Source of the DNA: Victivallales bacterium
GTDB lineage: Bacteria > Verrucomicrobiota > Lentisphaeria > Oligosphaerales > Oligosphaeraceae
Direction: 5' to 3'
DNA: 7,957 nt
NCBI GenBank assembly: GCA_017543165.1
Contig: JAFYGL010000198.1
Coordinates: 1-7,957, forward strand
This document shows positions 1-7,241 of this stretch, one piece after another. The notes under the pieces were generated by a model. It did not search any database. It was not told the DNA's origin and saw only the letters and a program-made list of their open reading frames with translations. Both the position numbers and the translations under genes were made by a program. The stretch's first letter is position 1; each line of letters begins with the position of its first letter.

Positions 1-215
1 AATGTCACAATGGCCTCTGCTTTCCCTTCCTGGAATTGCTTGAGGGCGGCCTTGACCTCGTCGCAGCGGGCGCAGACTGGGGCCGCGATCAACTCGCATC
101 CCATTGAACGCAGTTTGCCTGCTATGGTATTTGCGAACTTGGCGACTTTTTCATCGTATGCAGGGCATACGTCACGGTAAAACTGTAGATACAGCGGCAG
201 AAAACCTAATTTCAT
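1..215 (-). CDS. L-fucose/L-arabinose isomerase-like protein, N-terminal part (3' end outside window)
   Basis: This reading frame starts with ATG at 215 and stays open to the left edge, giving 71 codons plus two bases; it is the N-terminus of a gene continuing outside. The protein begins MKLGFLPLYLQFYRDVCPAY, followed by a helix-rich stretch, then ELIAAPVCARCDEVKAAL and ...GKAEAIVT. The pattern of a 'GFLPLYL' strand, a long helix, an 'APVC' strand and a 'DAIVT'-like strand is what I recall for the N-terminal Rossmann-like domain of the L-fucose/L-arabinose isomerase-like family, which interconvert aldoses and ketoses. The metal-binding catalytic residues lie in the missing part and cannot be checked. 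The start is supported by a Shine-Dalgarno AAGGA at 224-228, eight bases upstream. The neighbours upstream on the same strand are the inverted repeat at 235-311 and the symporter gene. A sugar isomerase fits the glycan-use context. The family call is moderately sure; the substrate is unknown. Confidence 0.6.
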   Translation of the reverse strand, partial: MKLGFLPLYLQFYRDVCPAYDEKVAKFANTIAGKLRSMGCELIAAPVCARCDEVKAALKQFQEGKAEAIVT

Positions 216-317: not shown

Positions 318-1706
318 TTATTTTATTTTGTATTTGATGTCCTGGCAGTCAGGATCCAGGTCGTACAAATGTTCCTCAGACCAGAGGTATTTCCGTGTTT
401 CCTCCACTACCTTGTTACTGAGGAATAGCAGGGACACTATGTTCGGGAAAACCATGAAGCCGTTTGCCAGGTCGGAGAAATCCCACACTATGGCGATGGA
501 GCCGATGGAACCCAGGAATGCGGCGATGACGAACAGTATCCTGTAGCCGATGATTGCGGCCTTCTTCTTGCTGAGGAAATGCACGCACTGCTCGCCATAG
601 TAGCACCATCCAAGCACCGTGGTTATTGCGAACGCGAATATTGAGAATGCCAGGATGTACTTCCCGCAGTAGGGTATCTGCTCGAAGGCGGACTGGGTGA
701 GAAGCTGGTTGTTGGTGATGTCTATGCTGGCATTGGCTATGGCGCTGGACACGATGACCAGCCCCGTCAGTGCGCAGATGACAATTGTGCAGGCGGTGCC
801 AGTGTAGGACACCAGTCCCTGGCGCACTGCATTGCGCGCCTGGGCGGTGGCCGCCACGATTGGTTCGGAACCCATGCCCGCCTCGTTGGAGAACAGGCCT
901 CGCGCAATGCCGTAGCGCGCCGCCAGCATAAGCCCGTATCCAGCCAGACCGCCTGTCACCGCCTTTGCGCTGAAGGCGCTCTTCACTATGACTGCAATCG
1001 CCTCGGGCAGCACCTTGACATTGATTATCAGGAGCGTGAAGCAGCCCAGCAGGTATATTGTGGACATCAGCGGCACCAGTTTGGTGCAGACGGAGGCGAT
1101 GGAATTCAACCCGCCAATCACCACCAGCGCAATGACTATCGCCACTGCAAGGCCCGTGATCCAGTTCGGCACAGAGAATGTCCTGTTGACAATGGCGGCA
1201 ATGGCGTTGCTTTGCACCAGGTCGCCTGTGCCTATCACGGCGATGGCTCCTGTTATGCTGAACAATATTGCAAGCCAGCGCATGCCCAGCCCGTTGCTGA
1301 TTGTGTACATTGGCCCGCCATGCACCTCGCCATTGCTGTCCTTTGCCCTGTATTTCACGGCTAGCAGCGATTCCGCATATTTTGTGGACATGCCGAATAT
1401 GCCCGTCATCAGGCACCAGAACACCGCGCCTGGGCCGCCCATGGTTATGGCCGTCGCCACGCCGATGATATTGCCTGTGCCGATGGTGGAGGCCATGGCG
1501 ACTGCCAGCGCGGAGATGGGCGATATGTTGCCTCCCTGGCTGTCCTCTTTACGCTTGATTATGATGCGGAAAGCCTTGATAAGATGCCTCTGCACGAATC
1601 TTAGCCGTATGGTGTAGAAGATATGCGTGCCAAGAAGCAGCACCAGCAGCGGCGGTCCCCAGATGAATGAATCAGCCCAGGCAATCCAGGAAGATAAAGT
1701 CTCCAT
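318..1706 (-). CDS. AGCS family sodium:alanine/glycine symporter
   Basis: This 462-residue inner-membrane protein belongs to the alanine/glycine:cation symporter family (AlsT/DagA-like), which imports small neutral amino acids with sodium. Family signatures are visible throughout. There is an N-terminal WGPPLLVLLLGTHIFYTIRL segment. The core motif GTGNI is at residues 76-80, followed by a GGPGAVFW segment (90-97). GGPMYTI is at 130-136, NEAGMGSEPIVAATA at 274-288, and TTVLGWCYYGE at 361-371. About ten or eleven hydrophobic segments span the chain, and the length is normal for the family. ATG at 1706 gives the expected family N-terminus, but no Shine-Dalgarno is visible upstream. A terminator lies between it and the upstream pseudopilin gene and a promoter candidate lies at 1733-1761, so it is probably its own transcription unit, possibly with the downstream isomerase. 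An amino acid carrier is an unexpected neighbour for sugar genes. Which amino acid is carried cannot be told. Confidence 0.93.
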   Translation of the reverse strand: METLSSWIAWADSFIWGPPLLVLLLGTHIFYTIRLRFVQRHLIKAFRIIIKRKEDSQGGNISPISALAVAMASTIGTGNIIGVATAITMGGPGAVFWCLMTGIFGMSTKYAESLLAVKYRAKDSNGEVHGGPMYTISNGLGMRWLAILFSITGAIAVIGTGDLVQSNAIAAIVNRTFSVPNWITGLAVAIVIALVVIGGLNSIASVCTKLVPLMSTIYLLGCFTLLIINVKVLPEAIAVIVKSAFSAKAVTGGLAGYGLMLAARYGIARGLFSNEAGMGSEPIVAATAQARNAVRQGLVSYTGTACTIVICALTGLVIVSSAIANASIDITNNQLLTQSAFEQIPYCGKYILAFSIFAFAITTVLGWCYYGEQCVHFLSKKKAAIIGYRILFVIAAFLGSIGSIAIVWDFSDLANGFMVFPNIVSLLFLSNKVVEETRKYLWSEEHLYDLDPDCQDIKYKIK

Positions 1707-1868: not shown

Positions 1869-2666
1869 TTAATAGGAGTTTGGCATGCCTCCATTCCAGT
1901 TTACGGCAGCTGAAAGAGGACCGCCGCCTTCAACAATGCTCTTTGATGCGGTTACTGGGTCGGAAGCGGTGCCTTTGAATTGCTGCACGTGGCCATCGCT
2001 GAATGAGACATTGGCAATGCCCTGATGACGTGGGCCAAGATGCCCGTTTCCTTGATCCCCACTATACCATGCGTTCTGGTAATTTGCATACATGGCAAAG
2101 AATCCCACATTTTGATCAGCATTGTTCAAATCGCCACCTGGAGTGTAAATGCTATCAGCGAACATGACCAAGTCAGAAGGATTTGTTACAATGCTTTCCT
2201 TGGGGGGAATGCCTGTATAGCTTGATGCGTTTGAATATGGATTTTTACCGCCACCGCCGCCAGGATATCTCCAGTTGTAGCCATAGTTGATGTAAGTCCA
2301 GACCCAGCCTGAAACTCCGCTTGCCGTGGGATTGTGCATATAATCGCGCCAAATTACTGCGCTTGGGCAGATGAGTGATTTGGTGTCAGCCAAATAGCGT
2401 GTTGTGCTATTTGGGGATGCCAGAATTTTCGCCCAAGTCCCCATAGTGTCTGTTGCTTCGGTGGCTGGCACGAAATGGCCATCGAAGTCATCCCGATACA
2501 TACGCTCCGCCAATGCGATTTGCTTAATGTTGCTGGCGCAGTTGATTGCGCGGGCCTTTTCGCGGGCCTTGCTCAGCGCTGGCAGCAGCATCGCTGCCAG
2601 AATTGCGATGATGGCTATGACCACCAGCAATTCAATCAAGGTGAATTGTTTCTTCTCTCTGTTCAT
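1869..2666 (-). CDS. Type II secretion-like pseudopilin with H-X9-DG C-terminal motif
   Basis: This 265-residue protein has a prepilin-type N-terminus: a short basic leader MNREKKQ, then [20 protein letters not shown] as the single membrane helix and pilin assembly domain. Glu12 corresponds to the conserved Glu5 of mature pilins. The helix continues as [24 protein letters not shown]. The C-terminal part has the H-X9-DG motif (His214, Asp224-Gly225, within [15 protein letters not shown]). This combination marks the PulG-like/DUF1559-type pseudopilins expanded in Lentisphaerota and Planctomycetota. The residue before the predicted cleavage site is Gln, not the usual Gly. Two cysteines (43 and 100) could pair. 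ATG at 2666 has AAGGA at 2676-2680, nine bases upstream. The gene follows the glycosidase-like gene after 43 bases and is closed by a strong terminator, so it is probably the last gene of that operon. Its role is unknown; presentation or secretion of glycan-active proteins is inference from context. Confidence 0.92.
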
Positions 2667-2709
2667 TTTCCTGTTTCCTTTTGGTTTGGGGTGAAATTAT
2701 CTACAAAAA

Positions 2710-5700
2710 TCAGTCAGACCATATTTCCATTTCGGAGATGATTACAGGCTGCGGATTCGCCTCCAATGTAATTTTCAGCGCGTCTGCACTAACGGCCTTT
2801 GGCAGGGCGAACTCCGCAACGCGCACACTGAAGGAATCCTTGTTGAAGTCCTCAGCACAGGGAAAATCATACTTGATGCCGCCTATCTCCAATGACGCAT
2901 TGCGCCAAATGCCGCTGATGAACAGTCTCACTCTCCTGACATTGCGCTTGGCGGACCACTTGCAGTCAATCGAAACTGGCCTTTTCTCGCCGTTGTAGCC
3001 GATTGACCAGTCCATCCAATGGCTCTTGTTCTTGCAGGCACTGGGGGCGACTGCCGCCCTTGGCCTGTCCGTCAACTTGCCCTTGTCAAATGGAATGCTG
3101 CCCGGCTGGACATCCTTGGCCCAATTTGGTTCAGGCGAAAACGTGTATGTTCCAGTTACGTTGCCGTTGCAGGGCATGACTGGCGTGAAATGCTCCCACT
3201 TTACGTAGTTGTTTGTCAGGCACTTTTCAGGCAAAGCCTCGTTTTTGGGCAGGATTGAGGCGGGGAACTGGAAGCGCCAGAAGTCGCACTTTGTCTTCAC
3301 GCCGCATTGCTGGCAGATTTTCAGGAAGAAGCTCTTCCATTCGGGAAGGTCAACCAGCTTTGATGAGCAGGGATTTGCCGCCAGTGTGAGTACCTTGCCT
3401 TTGCCGCACCTGTTCTCCACCAGGGCCGCGTCTCCATTGGCGAATCTAACCAGCGTCTTTGCACCGCGCAGTGGATTCAGCTTGGGGCAGCGAATCGCCG
3501 CGACTGGAACACGTATTCCGCCGTAGTTGAAGTTAAGGGGATTTGCACAATAGCCCTTGAACTCCACACCTGTCAATGCCTGTCTCTCCTTCTCCAGTGA
3601 ATCGCCTTCTGTAGTGAAGCTGAAGGCATCGTTCCAGAGCACCAGCAGGGTGCCGCCATCGCGCACGTATGCCTGAAGTGCCGCCAGAGCCTTTCTTGGC
3701 AGGTACTTGTTCTCCACTGTGATGATTAGCTTGTAGTCGCCCAGCTTGTCCAGGGTCTGCTCATTCACGAAGGTGTAGCTGAGGCCTGCGCCGTAACCAA
3801 GGTATGTGTGCAGATAGATGTCATTGGCTGGCGTCGCCCTGAATGGAAGGGCACGCAGTGAATCCGTGGATGTGAACACGGCGGAATCGCATTCTGGGAA
3901 TGCCAGCTTTGGCATTGTGGCCAGCATCTTCTGCGCGCCAATCTCCACGGCATACCTGTCAGGTGCGCCCCAGCGCTCATGGATCAGGTATTTTTTGCCG
4001 CTGTTGTTTCCTGTGGAATCGTGCAGATAATAGTGGAAGCCAGTGGCGCCATTGCGCACGGCGGCTGATAGCTTGTACAGCACTTCCTTTGGCGTAAAAG
4101 AGGCACCATATTCCTCAATGTGGGGGCAGGGCCAGACTTCCTCGGCGCCAGTCAGCGTGGAGACGTACCTGGTCACGAAGCCAAAATCGTCCAGTCCTGG
4201 ATGGTTTCTTGGATAGAGCTGATGCGTGACGATGTCAAAGCTGCCCTTCCAGTCAGCGAAGCTGTAGATTTTGCTCTGGTGTCCCACTGGGTCATCAGAA
4301 ACCACGATTATGTCTGGATTGATTGACTTTGCCAGGTCGTATGCCTCATGATACAGCTTGACCAGCTCGTCATTCAGAGCGCGTCTATATGCAATCCATG
4401 CCAGCGGGTCGCTTTCGTCAAAGCTGGCTGGAATGCCGTATTTGCCTCTGCCGTATTTCTGCTTGACCATGGCGTCGAACTTCTTCAGGTCTGCATTGTC
4501 TGGCAGCTGCTTGAAGTCCGCGATAATTCTGTTTTCCGCGCATTCGGCTGATTCATCCGCCCAAGTTATGATTCTTACCTGCTTGTTTGAGGCGATGGTC
4601 TTCACATCCTCCAGCGAGAGCCTGCGAACCTCGGGAATGACAATTGAGGCATGATGCAGGCCAGACTTGATGTTCCTCTCAAGCACCCTGGGCATGGCGG
4701 CGATCGGGATTCCCAGCTCCTTGCAGAAGACCTCCTTGTTCATCCAGTCTATCATTGTCAGGTTGCTGTAGTTTGCCATGCCAGTGTCCTTGTTCTCCTG
4801 AGCGACGCCCATGACTGAAAATGGGATGCCATACTGAATGCCGAATTGCTGCATATAGCCTTTTTGCCCTACGCCGAATAACCACTGGAAGCCGTGAAAG
4901 TCCCTCTTTGGCAGATGTTCCTTGCTCAAAAGCTCATTGAAGAGAGGTTTATCCACTGGCAGTGCCAGCAGCTTTTCCTTTGCGCTGAGCTGCGGGAATG
5001 TGAATGTGCCGCTGTAGAGCGCATTGCCAGAGCCGTTTTCCGACAGCACACTGTATTTGATTGAGGCCACTTTTTTATGGCCATTTGCCTTGTAGTCAAT
5101 ACGGCTTTCCCTGCCAGGAACTGTCTTGAGGCTGAAATTTCCCAGCTTGCTGAAGGAGCTGTCGTACGTCTCTAATGTGACAGTGTATTTGCGCTTGTCT
5201 TTGGCATCGGTGTTGGCAAAGCGCATTTCAGGAACCAGTGGGGAACCCAGTACCAGGAATGTCACAGGCGGGAGCTTGCTGCCATGAGCCATAGGTCTGA
5301 ATTGGCGCAGGCGGCTTCTGTCCAGAAATCCGCCGCTGCCCTTGCCTAGGCAGGAATATTCTGGGGGCGTGTGTCCATTGCGCTCACGTCCCAGGTTGAT
5401 GCGCAGTATCTCCGCCCCGCCTGGCATAATGCCCAAGTCCGCAAATGGAATCAGTAGCTCCAATTCCCAGTTGTCCTTGTTGAGCTTGCATGCTGAATGA
5501 ATGCCACTTTCAAAAGTGGTGTCCCCATTGAACGCGTCGTAGATGATGCCATTGGTGTTGACCGCAAAGTGGAACAGGCCATCCTTGTTGTTGCCGAATG
5601 GCTCTATGAACACCTCAACGCAGTCGTCCTGGTGGATGGCATTGTCCCGTTCCTCCGTGTGGGAGAAGTTCCTTTTGATGTGGGCAATGTCTGGCTCGTT

Positions 5701-5949
5701 GCAGTGGAAGGCGATGTAGAGGTTGTCCTTGTCACATCCCATGCGCCAGGTGGTGGCATGCTGGGGCGCATTGCCAGTTCCCGAATGGAAGAATACTCCC
5801 TTTGCGGCTTTGTCCCACTCCGCCTTGTCAATCACACCGTCCAGCTTTGGCTTTCCAATGGCGGGGATATTGACAATGCCGCCCTCTGCCGCAATGCACA
5901 TATTGCAGAACAGGGCAAGCGTCGCAAATATGAAAGTACGTCTGAACAT
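2710..5949 (-). CDS. Exported multidomain glycosidase-like protein (CBM9-like, GH-like barrel, trimerisation-like, F5/8-type domains)
   Basis: Read from ATG at 5949, this is a 1079-residue protein. Residues 1-20 form a signal peptide (MFRRTFIFATLALFCNMCIA). Residues 25-225 resemble the CBM9-like carbohydrate-binding domain: PKLDGVIDKAEWDKA, DNLYIAFHCNEPD, DDCVEVFIEPFG, FHFAVNTNGIIYDA and WELELLIPFADLG. Residues 340-675 look like a TIM-barrel glycosidase. WADE (E466) and the PHIEEY stretch (E612/E613) followed by AAVRNGATGFHYY recall the acid/base and nucleophile strands of GH42-type clan A enzymes, but the match is distant. Residues 710-870 resemble the glutamine-amidotransferase-like trimerisation domain of beta-galactosidases (KLGDYKLIITVENKYLP...LQAYVRDGGTLLVLW). 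The last 110 residues resemble an F5/8 type C/CBM32-like sheet ending in ISEMEIW. It likely acts on a glycan in the periplasm or outside. An in-frame TTG at 5967 would overlap the upstream gene, but ATG at 5949 suits the signal peptide and the GAGGAA site. Catalytic activity is inferred only. Confidence 0.8.
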   Translation of the reverse strand: MFRRTFIFATLALFCNMCIAAEGGIVNIPAIGKPKLDGVIDKAEWDKAAKGVFFHSGTGNAPQHATTWRMGCDKDNLYIAFHCNEPDIAHIKRNFSHTEERDNAIHQDDCVEVFIEPFGNNKDGLFHFAVNTNGIIYDAFNGDTTFESGIHSACKLNKDNWELELLIPFADLGIMPGGAEILRINLGRERNGHTPPEYSCLGKGSGGFLDRSRLRQFRPMAHGSKLPPVTFLVLGSPLVPEMRFANTDAKDKRKYTVTLETYDSSFSKLGNFSLKTVPGRESRIDYKANGHKKVASIKYSVLSENGSGNALYSGTFTFPQLSAKEKLLALPVDKPLFNELLSKEHLPKRDFHGFQWLFGVGQKGYMQQFGIQYGIPFSVMGVAQENKDTGMANYSNLTMIDWMNKEVFCKELGIPIAAMPRVLERNIKSGLHHASIVIPEVRRLSLEDVKTIASNKQVRIITWADESAECAENRIIADFKQLPDNADLKKFDAMVKQKYGRGKYGIPASFDESDPLAWIAYRRALNDELVKLYHEAYDLAKSINPDIIVVSDDPVGHQSKIYSFADWKGSFDIVTHQLYPRNHPGLDDFGFVTRYVSTLTGAEEVWPCPHIEEYGASFTPKEVLYKLSAAVRNGATGFHYYLHDSTGNNSGKKYLIHERWGAPDRYAVEIGAQKMLATMPKLAFPECDSAVFTSTDSLRALPFRATPANDIYLHTYLGYGAGLSYTFVNEQTLDKLGDYKLIITVENKYLPRKALAALQAYVRDGGTLLVLWNDAFSFTTEGDSLEKERQALTGVEFKGYCANPLNFNYGGIRVPVAAIRCPKLNPLRGAKTLVRFANGDAALVENRCGKGKVLTLAANPCSSKLVDLPEWKSFFLKICQQCGVKTKCDFWRFQFPASILPKNEALPEKCLTNNYVKWEHFTPVMPCNGNVTGTYTFSPEPNWAKDVQPGSIPFDKGKLTDRPRAAVAPSACKNKSHWMDWSIGYNGEKRPVSIDCKWSAKRNVRRVRLFISGIWRNASLEIGGIKYDFPCAEDFNKDSFSVRVAEFALPKAVSADALKITLEANPQPVIISEMEIWSD

Positions 5950-5959
5950 TTTGCTATGG

Positions 5960-5965
5960 TTCCTC
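5960..5965 (-). promoter_or_regulatory. Ribosome binding site deciding the glycosidase-like gene start
   Basis: GAGGAA at 5965-5960 on the minus strand stands ten bases before ATG 5949. It overlaps the TGA stop (5964-5966) of the oxidoreductase gene. This position supports ATG 5949 rather than the in-frame TTG at 5967, which would place the site inside the coding region and add six polar residues ahead of the signal peptide. Overlap of the site with the stop suggests translational coupling. Confidence 0.7.
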
Positions 5966-7241
5966 AATCGAATTGCTCCACCTTCACCAGCTCGCCATCT
6001 CTCTGGGCTGACTTGTGGGCGGCTGCGCCCATGGCCATGAAATGCGCGGCTTCCCTGGCGGGAATCTCTGGCTCGCGGCCTTCCGCAACGGATGCTACGA
6101 ACTCATGCACCAGATATGGATGGCTGCCTCCGTGGCCTGTTGGCTGGAAGTCATCCTTTTCCGTGGCATTTGGATTGCACACTGGCTTGAACGCCTCCTG
6201 CACCTCTGGCGGCAGCGGGTCGCGCATTTCAGCGGGTTTCATTTCCTTGAAGCCTGCCCATGGCCATACTTTGTCCGCTGGATTGGGCACATTCTCCATG
6301 ATGGGCTGCGCCGTGCCTGGGACTGTGCGGTGATTGCTCTGCCATACGTTGCGGGAGAAGCTACCCATCTTGCCGAAGATGCGGAATATCTCGGACTCCT
6401 CACGGTCAAAGCTGGTGGCACCGATTTCACGGCATTCCGCGATGCGCAGGGAGGTCCCGTTTGCAAGCTGGAAGAGGGCAAACACATTGGAGAAGTCGTC
6501 TATCTCAAAGAAGCTGTCGTTGTTGGTGTTGGGCACGCCATACGCACTGACTTTGACGGCGCGTGTATTCATCACGTGTATCGGGCCTGATACCGAATGG
6601 GTGGGATAGCTCATTGGATTGTGTTTTGCGCCTTTGGCGATGTATGGCGCCATGACCGCCCCGTACTGTTCGCCGATCTTGCCAGTTTTGCGTGCCTTCA
6701 CCACGTTGCGCAGATTGCTCCATCCGTTCAGGTTGCCATCCACGTCATGGACATATTCGCCTTCCGCATACACGAATTCGCCGAACTCGCCAGCTGCCGC
6801 CTTGCGCTTGCAGAACATGGTCTGGGGACGGTAGATGGTGGTCTCGCCCAGCATGTACTGGCAGCCTGTGCGCTTCACGGCCTCCACCAGCTTGTGGCAC
6901 CAGTCCAGCACCACGTCATCATCAGGAAGGCTTATCAATGGCACTGCGCTATACACGTGCTTGCCTGAATTGAGCACCTGCAGGCACTGCGGCGCGTGAA
7001 GCCAGGGCTGCGTGATTACCACAATGGCCTCCACATCCTTTTTCACCAGTTCGTCCAGCGATGTGCAGCATTCGCTTACGGACAGTTTGTCCTGCATGAA
7101 GGGGTCTTCCGTAAATGTTTTTAACTTGCTGGCCTCGCAGTCGCAGAGCACGATTTTGTCCACCAGCGGATGTGCCTTGAACAGTTTGACGAAGTTGCTG
7201 CCGAACTGCCCCAATCCAAGCATTCCAAGTTTGATTCCCAT
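5964..7241 (-). CDS. Gfo/Idh/MocA family NAD(P)-dependent oxidoreductase lacking the EKP lysine
   Basis: This 425-residue cytoplasmic protein begins MGIKLGMLGLGQFGSNFVKLF, a Rossmann fold with GLGQFG at residues 9-14 for NAD(P) binding. It continues through VDKIVLCDCEASK (cofactor-selecting strand with acidic residues), EAIVVITQPWLHAPQ (72-85) and KHVYSAVPL (94-102). Most family members carry an EKP motif at that last position; here it reads Ala99-Val100-Pro101, so the lysine often needed for hydride transfer is absent. GETTIYRP (132-139) and YPTHSVSGPI (212-221, His215) match the sugar-binding C-terminal domain, and the C-terminus GHGGSHPYLVHEFV...GREPEIPAREAAH is typical. Length is normal. 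It follows the DeoR gene after 10 bases and precedes the exported glycosidase-like gene by 14, so it probably handles a sugar released by that protein. It may oxidise, reduce or epimerise a sugar or inositol-like compound; the substrate cannot be told. Confidence 0.92.
   Translation of the reverse strand: MGIKLGMLGLGQFGSNFVKLFKAHPLVDKIVLCDCEASKLKTFTEDPFMQDKLSVSECCTSLDELVKKDVEAIVVITQPWLHAPQCLQVLNSGKHVYSAVPLISLPDDDVVLDWCHKLVEAVKRTGCQYMLGETTIYRPQTMFCKRKAAAGEFGEFVYAEGEYVHDVDGNLNGWSNLRNVVKARKTGKIGEQYGAVMAPYIAKGAKHNPMSYPTHSVSGPIHVMNTRAVKVSAYGVPNTNNDSFFEIDDFSNVFALFQLANGTSLRIAECREIGATSFDREESEIFRIFGKMGSFSRNVWQSNHRTVPGTAQPIMENVPNPADKVWPWAGFKEMKPAEMRDPLPPEVQEAFKPVCNPNATEKDDFQPTGHGGSHPYLVHEFVASVAEGREPEIPAREAAHFMAMGAAAHKSAQRDGELVKVEQFD

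What the first reader, a model, noticed from the sequence alone, without database searches (positions are those of the whole stretch)
1869..5949. Pseudopilin co-transcribed with a large exported glycosidase-like protein
A PulG/DUF1559-type pseudopilin with H-X9-DG follows, after 43 bases and before a strong terminator, a 1079-residue secreted CBM9/GH-like protein. The two genes therefore share one transcript with a DeoR repressor and a sugar oxidoreductase. Genes for type II secretion machinery (ATPase, secretin, prepilin peptidase) are absent here, so this is an orphan pseudopilin dedicated to a sugar locus. One possibility is that it is a surface-displayed or periplasmic partner that binds the same glycan or helps export the enzyme. 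Such pairing is, as I recall, recurrent in Lentisphaerota but poorly explained.
Basis: partly seen in the sequence, partly recalled or inferred. Interest (0 to 1): 0.7.

Follow-up and report, generated by a model that had tools for sequence, protein, structure and literature searches.

The report
Pilin paired with exported sugar enzyme
In a rumen bacterium, a gene for a pilus-type protein sits in one operon with a gene for a large exported sugar-cutting enzyme, and some relatives keep such matched pairs, which hints that an enzyme may have its own pilin helper.

Summary
In detail: on the minus strand lie DeoR, a GFO/IDH/MocA oxidoreductase, a 1079-aa exported CBM9 + GH42-fold protein (BIG) and a 265-aa H-X9-DG (DUF1559) pilin, spaced 10, 14 and 43 bases, then a strong terminator. 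Two other rumen genomes keep the order. A same-strand pilin directly beside BIG relatives is found in 13 of 25 genes: 9 of 9 in the order of genome G003, 3 of 11 in the order of G002 (the window's likely own order; 5 of the 8 misses are cut by a contig end), 1 of 5 elsewhere. Pilins at 11 of the 13 loci fall into four lineages that follow the BIG subfamilies. One BIG clade (L003 + L005) has none. Across 40 genomes, 14 of 40 sampled pilins adjoin an exported large protein, against 15 of 221 random genes; in G002 alone there is no enrichment (8 of 48). 'Orphan' is true only locally: the machinery lies elsewhere in relatives. A 2026 paper already reports a PulG-like pseudopilin in an alginate-induced operon (PMC13274419). 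Best reading: a dedicated pseudopilin escorting or displaying its enzyme; pairing shown, mechanism inferred.

The parts
1869..2666 (-). H-X9-DG (DUF1559) pilin, 265 aa, last gene of the operon
   Evidence: group A lineage
1992..2027 (-). H-X9-DG motif of the pilin (H214 to G225)
   Evidence: read from the sequence; TIGR04294 match 213-228
2710..5949 (-). BIG: exported CBM9 + GH42-fold protein, 1079 aa
5272..5880 (-). CBM9 module of BIG (residues 24-226)
3256..4920 (-). Barrel and GATase-like domains of BIG (residues 344-898); likely catalytic E466 and E612
5964..7241 (-). GFO/IDH/MocA oxidoreductase, 425 aa
7252..7956 (-). DeoR-type regulator, 5' end cut by the window
   Evidence: PF00455; complete in L001
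1825..1841 (-). Intrinsic terminator after the pilin

Best explanation
The operon encodes a sugar regulator, a sugar oxidoreductase, an exported GH42-like glycosidase with a CBM9 module, and a pseudopilin dedicated to that enzyme. Shown: gene order, spacing, terminator, a pilin lineage that follows the enzyme subfamily, and pilus/secretion machinery elsewhere in relatives. Inferred: the enzyme crosses the inner membrane by its signal peptide; the pilin is cleaved by the shared prepilin peptidase and joins a shared pseudopilus; its C-terminal domain recruits that one enzyme and pushes it through the secretin or holds it at the cell surface while the sugar is present.
For: Order DeoR-oxidoreductase-BIG-pilin kept in L001 and L002. 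A pilin directly beside 13 of 25 BIG-like genes, 9 of 9 in the order of G003. Four pilin lineages follow BIG subfamilies among many paralogues; the trees largely agree. Random-gene controls are far lower: 10 of 133 and 5 of 88, 9 of 211. Machinery present in all five closest genomes. In print: a PulG-like pseudopilin in an alginate-induced operon with exported lyases, authors suggest type II export (PMC13274419).
Against: In the order of G002 only 3 of 11 BIG genes have an adjacent pilin (5 of the 8 misses cut on one side). The L003 + L005 clade has none, and no second close pilin was found in their genomes. G002 pilins in general: 8 of 48 against 28 of 232, no enrichment. The pilin lacks the usual Gly before the cleavage site. 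The pilin model is poor (mean pLDDT 55) and no contact with BIG was tested.
Confidence: 0.4

Rival explanations
1. The pilin is a glycan-capturing subunit: its globular domain binds the same polysaccharide and brings it to the cell, without touching the enzyme.
For: Group A pilins share invariant or near-invariant aromatic positions (W78, W123, Y128, Y130, W257); dextran sticks to pili-like fibres in planctomycetes (PMC5394234, passages); PF07596 is named a solute-binding family (PMC2754498, passage).
Against: No carbohydrate-binding fold was found; the pilin fold search gave nothing at E 0.001 or better. BIG already has a CBM9.
Confidence: 0.27
2. Co-regulation only: pilins are so numerous and mobile that some land in sugar operons and are induced with them, as general pilus parts with no partner of their own.
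For: 51-100 N_methyl proteins per genome in G001-G005. No general enrichment beside large exported proteins in G002. The pilin is upstream at some BIG loci and downstream at others. The L003 + L005 clade does without one.
Against: Pilin lineages A-D keep to their BIG subfamilies across genomes and orders; 9 of 9 BIG genes in the order of G003 have a pilin neighbour.
Confidence: 0.27

Closest known systems
PulG-like pseudopilin pgaptmp_000050 in the alginate operon of Verruconatronum alginivorum (PMC13274419; section 17 part 1 of 2 and passages seen)
   Same: Pseudopilin with 67 homologous proteins in the genome, inside a polysaccharide operon with exported lyases, induced as one unit on alginate; type II system encoded elsewhere.
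   Different: Other enzymes (PL15, PL39, PL29), other phylum group; matched pilin-enzyme lineages not described in what I saw. Sequences were not compared here.
DUF1559 / H-X9-DG pilin-like families of planctomycetes (PMC2754498, PMC10632474; passages seen)
   Same: Same Pfam family PF07596, large paralogue sets (74 and 68 members).
   Different: No link to particular exported enzymes in the passages seen.
Verru_Chthon cassette (TIGR02596, TIGR02598-TIGR02600)
   Same: Pilin-like proteins next to a BIG relative in L014.
   Different: A four-protein set with a 1200-aa protein A; the window has one pilin of another family.
GH42 beta-galactosidases / alpha-L-arabinopyranosidase
SusCD pairs of Bacteroidota (recalled)
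   Same: Idea of a surface pair per polysaccharide locus.
   Different: No TonB-dependent transporter or SusD in the window; a pilin instead.

Membership tests
H-X9-DG / DUF1559 pilin-like protein | Prepilin-type N terminus | tested here: met
   TIGR02532 and PF07596 above cut-off; PF07963 just below
H-X9-DG / DUF1559 pilin-like protein | C-terminal H-X9-DG | tested here: met
   TIGR04294 21.9 against 19
Canonical type IV prepilin | Gly just before the cleavage site (recalled) | tested here: not met
   Gln in the window; Gly in 1 of 90 G002 pilins
GspG major pseudopilin | TIGR01710 equivalog cut-off | tested here: not met
   37.2 against 88.85
GH42 | Pfam GH42 models | tested here: not met
   GH42M 19.7 against 25.8; catalytic model not listed
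GH42 | Fold of barrel plus GATase-like domain | tested here: inconclusive
GH42 | Two catalytic Glu at ends of strands 4 and 7 (recalled) | tested here: inconclusive
   E466 and E612 in 32 of 32 rows after model strands 4 and 7; activity unknown
CBM9 | PF06452 cut-off and fold | tested here: met
Dedicated escort of the partner enzyme | Pilin binds the enzyme | not testable with these tools
   No complex prediction or bench data

The most novel reading that the evidence does not exclude
Some Lentisphaeria run a 'one enzyme, one pilin' system: a shared pseudopilus carries many alternative pilins, each co-expressed with and specific for one exported polysaccharide enzyme, a counterpart of SusCD pairs built on secretion pilins. 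This would explain their large pilin families.
Probability: 0.27. Interest if true: 0.78.

Novelty: new variant of a known kind. Interest (0 to 1): 0.46.

Why it matters
What the tens to hundreds of DUF1559-type pilins in planctomycetes, Lentisphaeria and their kin are for is open. Matched pilin-enzyme lineages give a concrete, testable answer and name natural pairs for the test. If right, it would also show how these gut and rumen bacteria bring large glycosidases to their surface without a SusCD route.

Tried and rejected
A general rule that Lentisphaeria pilins adjoin exported enzymes holds only in part: 17 of 20 in G003, G005, G135 and G138, 8 of 20 and 6 of 20 across 20 genomes of each order, none above background in G002. 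Limits: in the 17, L165 counts through a FAD oxidoreductase that my crude hydrophobicity rule took for exported; G003 and G005 share near-identical pilins. In one search each focal pilin was a second or lower listed hit of its genome, chosen by me to avoid core pilins. The random genes for the order of G002 come from one genome (G033), where my simple caller found 110 genes in 200 kb. A looser rule (300 bases) gave 11 of 48 in G002 against 19 of 272 per side.

A second close pilin for the pilin-less BIG genes was sought in G002 and G004; the best other match is 46% identical. The pilin fold search gave no useful match. Same-contig pairs P0003/P0031 and P0007/P0032 are inferred from equal contig lengths. 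Group C 'pilins' (upstream in L025, L069, L070) are pilin-like by motif and kinship only: NCBIfam gave nothing for two and a weak GspG match for one. The L066 pilin and the L014 cassette are not in the pilin tree, whose bootstrap had not settled. Sixty loci (L166-L225) were not analysed. No viral collection was scanned.

Papers: searches. Passages only: PMC5352709, PMC2754498, PMC10632474, PMC4807772, PMC5394234, PMC12487129. Part of one section and passages: PMC13274419. Term look-ups without a match: PMC6388578, PMC10880615, PMC8857213. Others were seen as listings. These searches showed me no account of matched pilin-enzyme lineages; most subscription papers are not held.

Full report

Where it is from. 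The nearest relatives are Victivallales genomes from goat and sheep rumen. The window's own genome is not held. L001 (98% in BIG; genome G001) and L002 (59%; G002) keep the order DeoR-oxidoreductase-BIG-pilin; L004 (48%) keeps BIG-pilin with DeoR further off. Nearby in L002 and L004 lie an amidohydrolase (scanned in L002), class-III aminotransferase-like proteins and FGGY kinases, and in L004 an arabinose-isomerase-like protein. This is a sugar locus.

Is the pair kept? BIG at E 1e-150 is in 7 of 47 genomes of the order of G002 and 7 of 137 of the order of G003. Of 25 BIG-like genes at 24 loci, 13 have a pilin directly beside them on the same strand. By group: 9 of 9 in the order of G003; 3 of 11 in the order of G002, where 5 of the 8 without one are cut on one side; 1 of 5 in G010-G013, namely L014, where the neighbours are a Verru_Chthon cassette. 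Two BIG genes of the window's own subfamily, L003 and L005, have no adjacent pilin, and no second close pilin was found in their genomes.

One pilin or several recruited? In a tree of 133 pilins, those beside BIG at 11 of the 13 loci fall into lineages A to D (support 97/96 to 100/100 against the other groups). No paralogue from the sampled genomes lies inside them; six database proteins of unknown neighbourhood lie inside A. The BIG tree shows largely the same groups: the window with L001; L002 with P0003 and P0007; L004 outside; L006 with L007; L025, L067-L070 and L072 together. The pilin-less L003 and L005 form one clade, fitting one loss. Lineage A is downstream of BIG, B and C upstream, D downstream in four and upstream in one. 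So pilins of different lineages were joined to BIG genes more than once and then kept.

Is this special to BIG? In G003, G005, G135 and G138, 17 of 20 pilins lie within 100 bases of a protein judged exported and at least 400 aa long, against 9 of 211 random genes (Fisher p about 1e-16, not all independent); one of the 17 (L165) rests on a false export call. One pilin from each of 20 genomes per order gave 8 of 20 against 10 of 133 (order of G003) and 6 of 20 against 5 of 88 (order of G002). In G002 alone, 8 of 48 pilin clusters against 28 of 232 genes shows no enrichment. Other CBM9 proteins, by my reading: 2 of 21 with an adjacent pilin in G001, G002 and G004; 2 of 6 in G003 and G005, with a pilin one gene further off in three more. 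Of 20 proteins scanned next to or near the pilins of the four strongly paired genomes, 17 had a Pfam match, among them GH123, DUF4838, DUF6259, CBM9, CBM4_9, laminin-G, BNR, sulfatase/phosphodiesterase-like and GDSL types, and one FAD oxidoreductase.

Is the pilin an orphan? Only locally. Type II/IV ATPase, prepilin peptidase and secretin families have matches above cut-off in all five closest genomes. G002 has a 392-aa peptidase with paired cysteines and GYGD.

What is in print. DUF1559 families of 74 and 68 members are reported in planctomycetes, and dextran binds pili-like fibres there. The closest case is PMC13274419: in a verrucomicrobial alginate degrader, an operon induced by alginate holds exported lyases and a PulG-like pseudopilin with 67 homologous proteins, and the authors suggest type II export. 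That lowers the novelty of the pairing as such.

Verdict. The operon pair of an exported GH42-fold enzyme and a lineage-specific pilin is well supported. That the pilin escorts or displays that enzyme is the likeliest function (0.40), ahead of glycan capture (0.27) and mere co-regulation (0.27). A general one-enzyme-one-pilin system is not excluded (0.27), but 3 of 11 in the order of G002, the pilin-less clade and the null result in G002 speak against a strict rule.

Noticed in passing
window 2643-2666; G002 pilins: The residue before the prepilin cleavage site is Gln here and Gly in only 1 of 90 G002 pilins and 16 of 119 database relatives, although a prepilin peptidase is present.
   Followed up: partly
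L001:1-3066 (-): A second pilin-enzyme pair in the same locus: a pilin 17 bases before a DUF4838/GH67N/CBM9 protein.
   Followed up: partly
L014:9932-19062: A BIG relative sits directly before a Verru_Chthon cassette B, C, A, D.
   Followed up: partly
L025, L069, L070 (upstream of BIG): A conserved pilin-like protein with a degenerate N terminus, mostly unseen by NCBIfam, precedes BIG in two orders.
   Followed up: partly
window 3-215 (-): N-terminal 71 aa of a protein 42% identical to an arabinose-isomerase-like protein of L004.
   Followed up: partly
window 318-1706 (-): Sodium:alanine symporter family protein after the terminator.
   Followed up: no
G002: L030, L050, L053, L061: Tandem arrays of three to five similar pilins, possibly a source of new pilins.
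   Followed up: no
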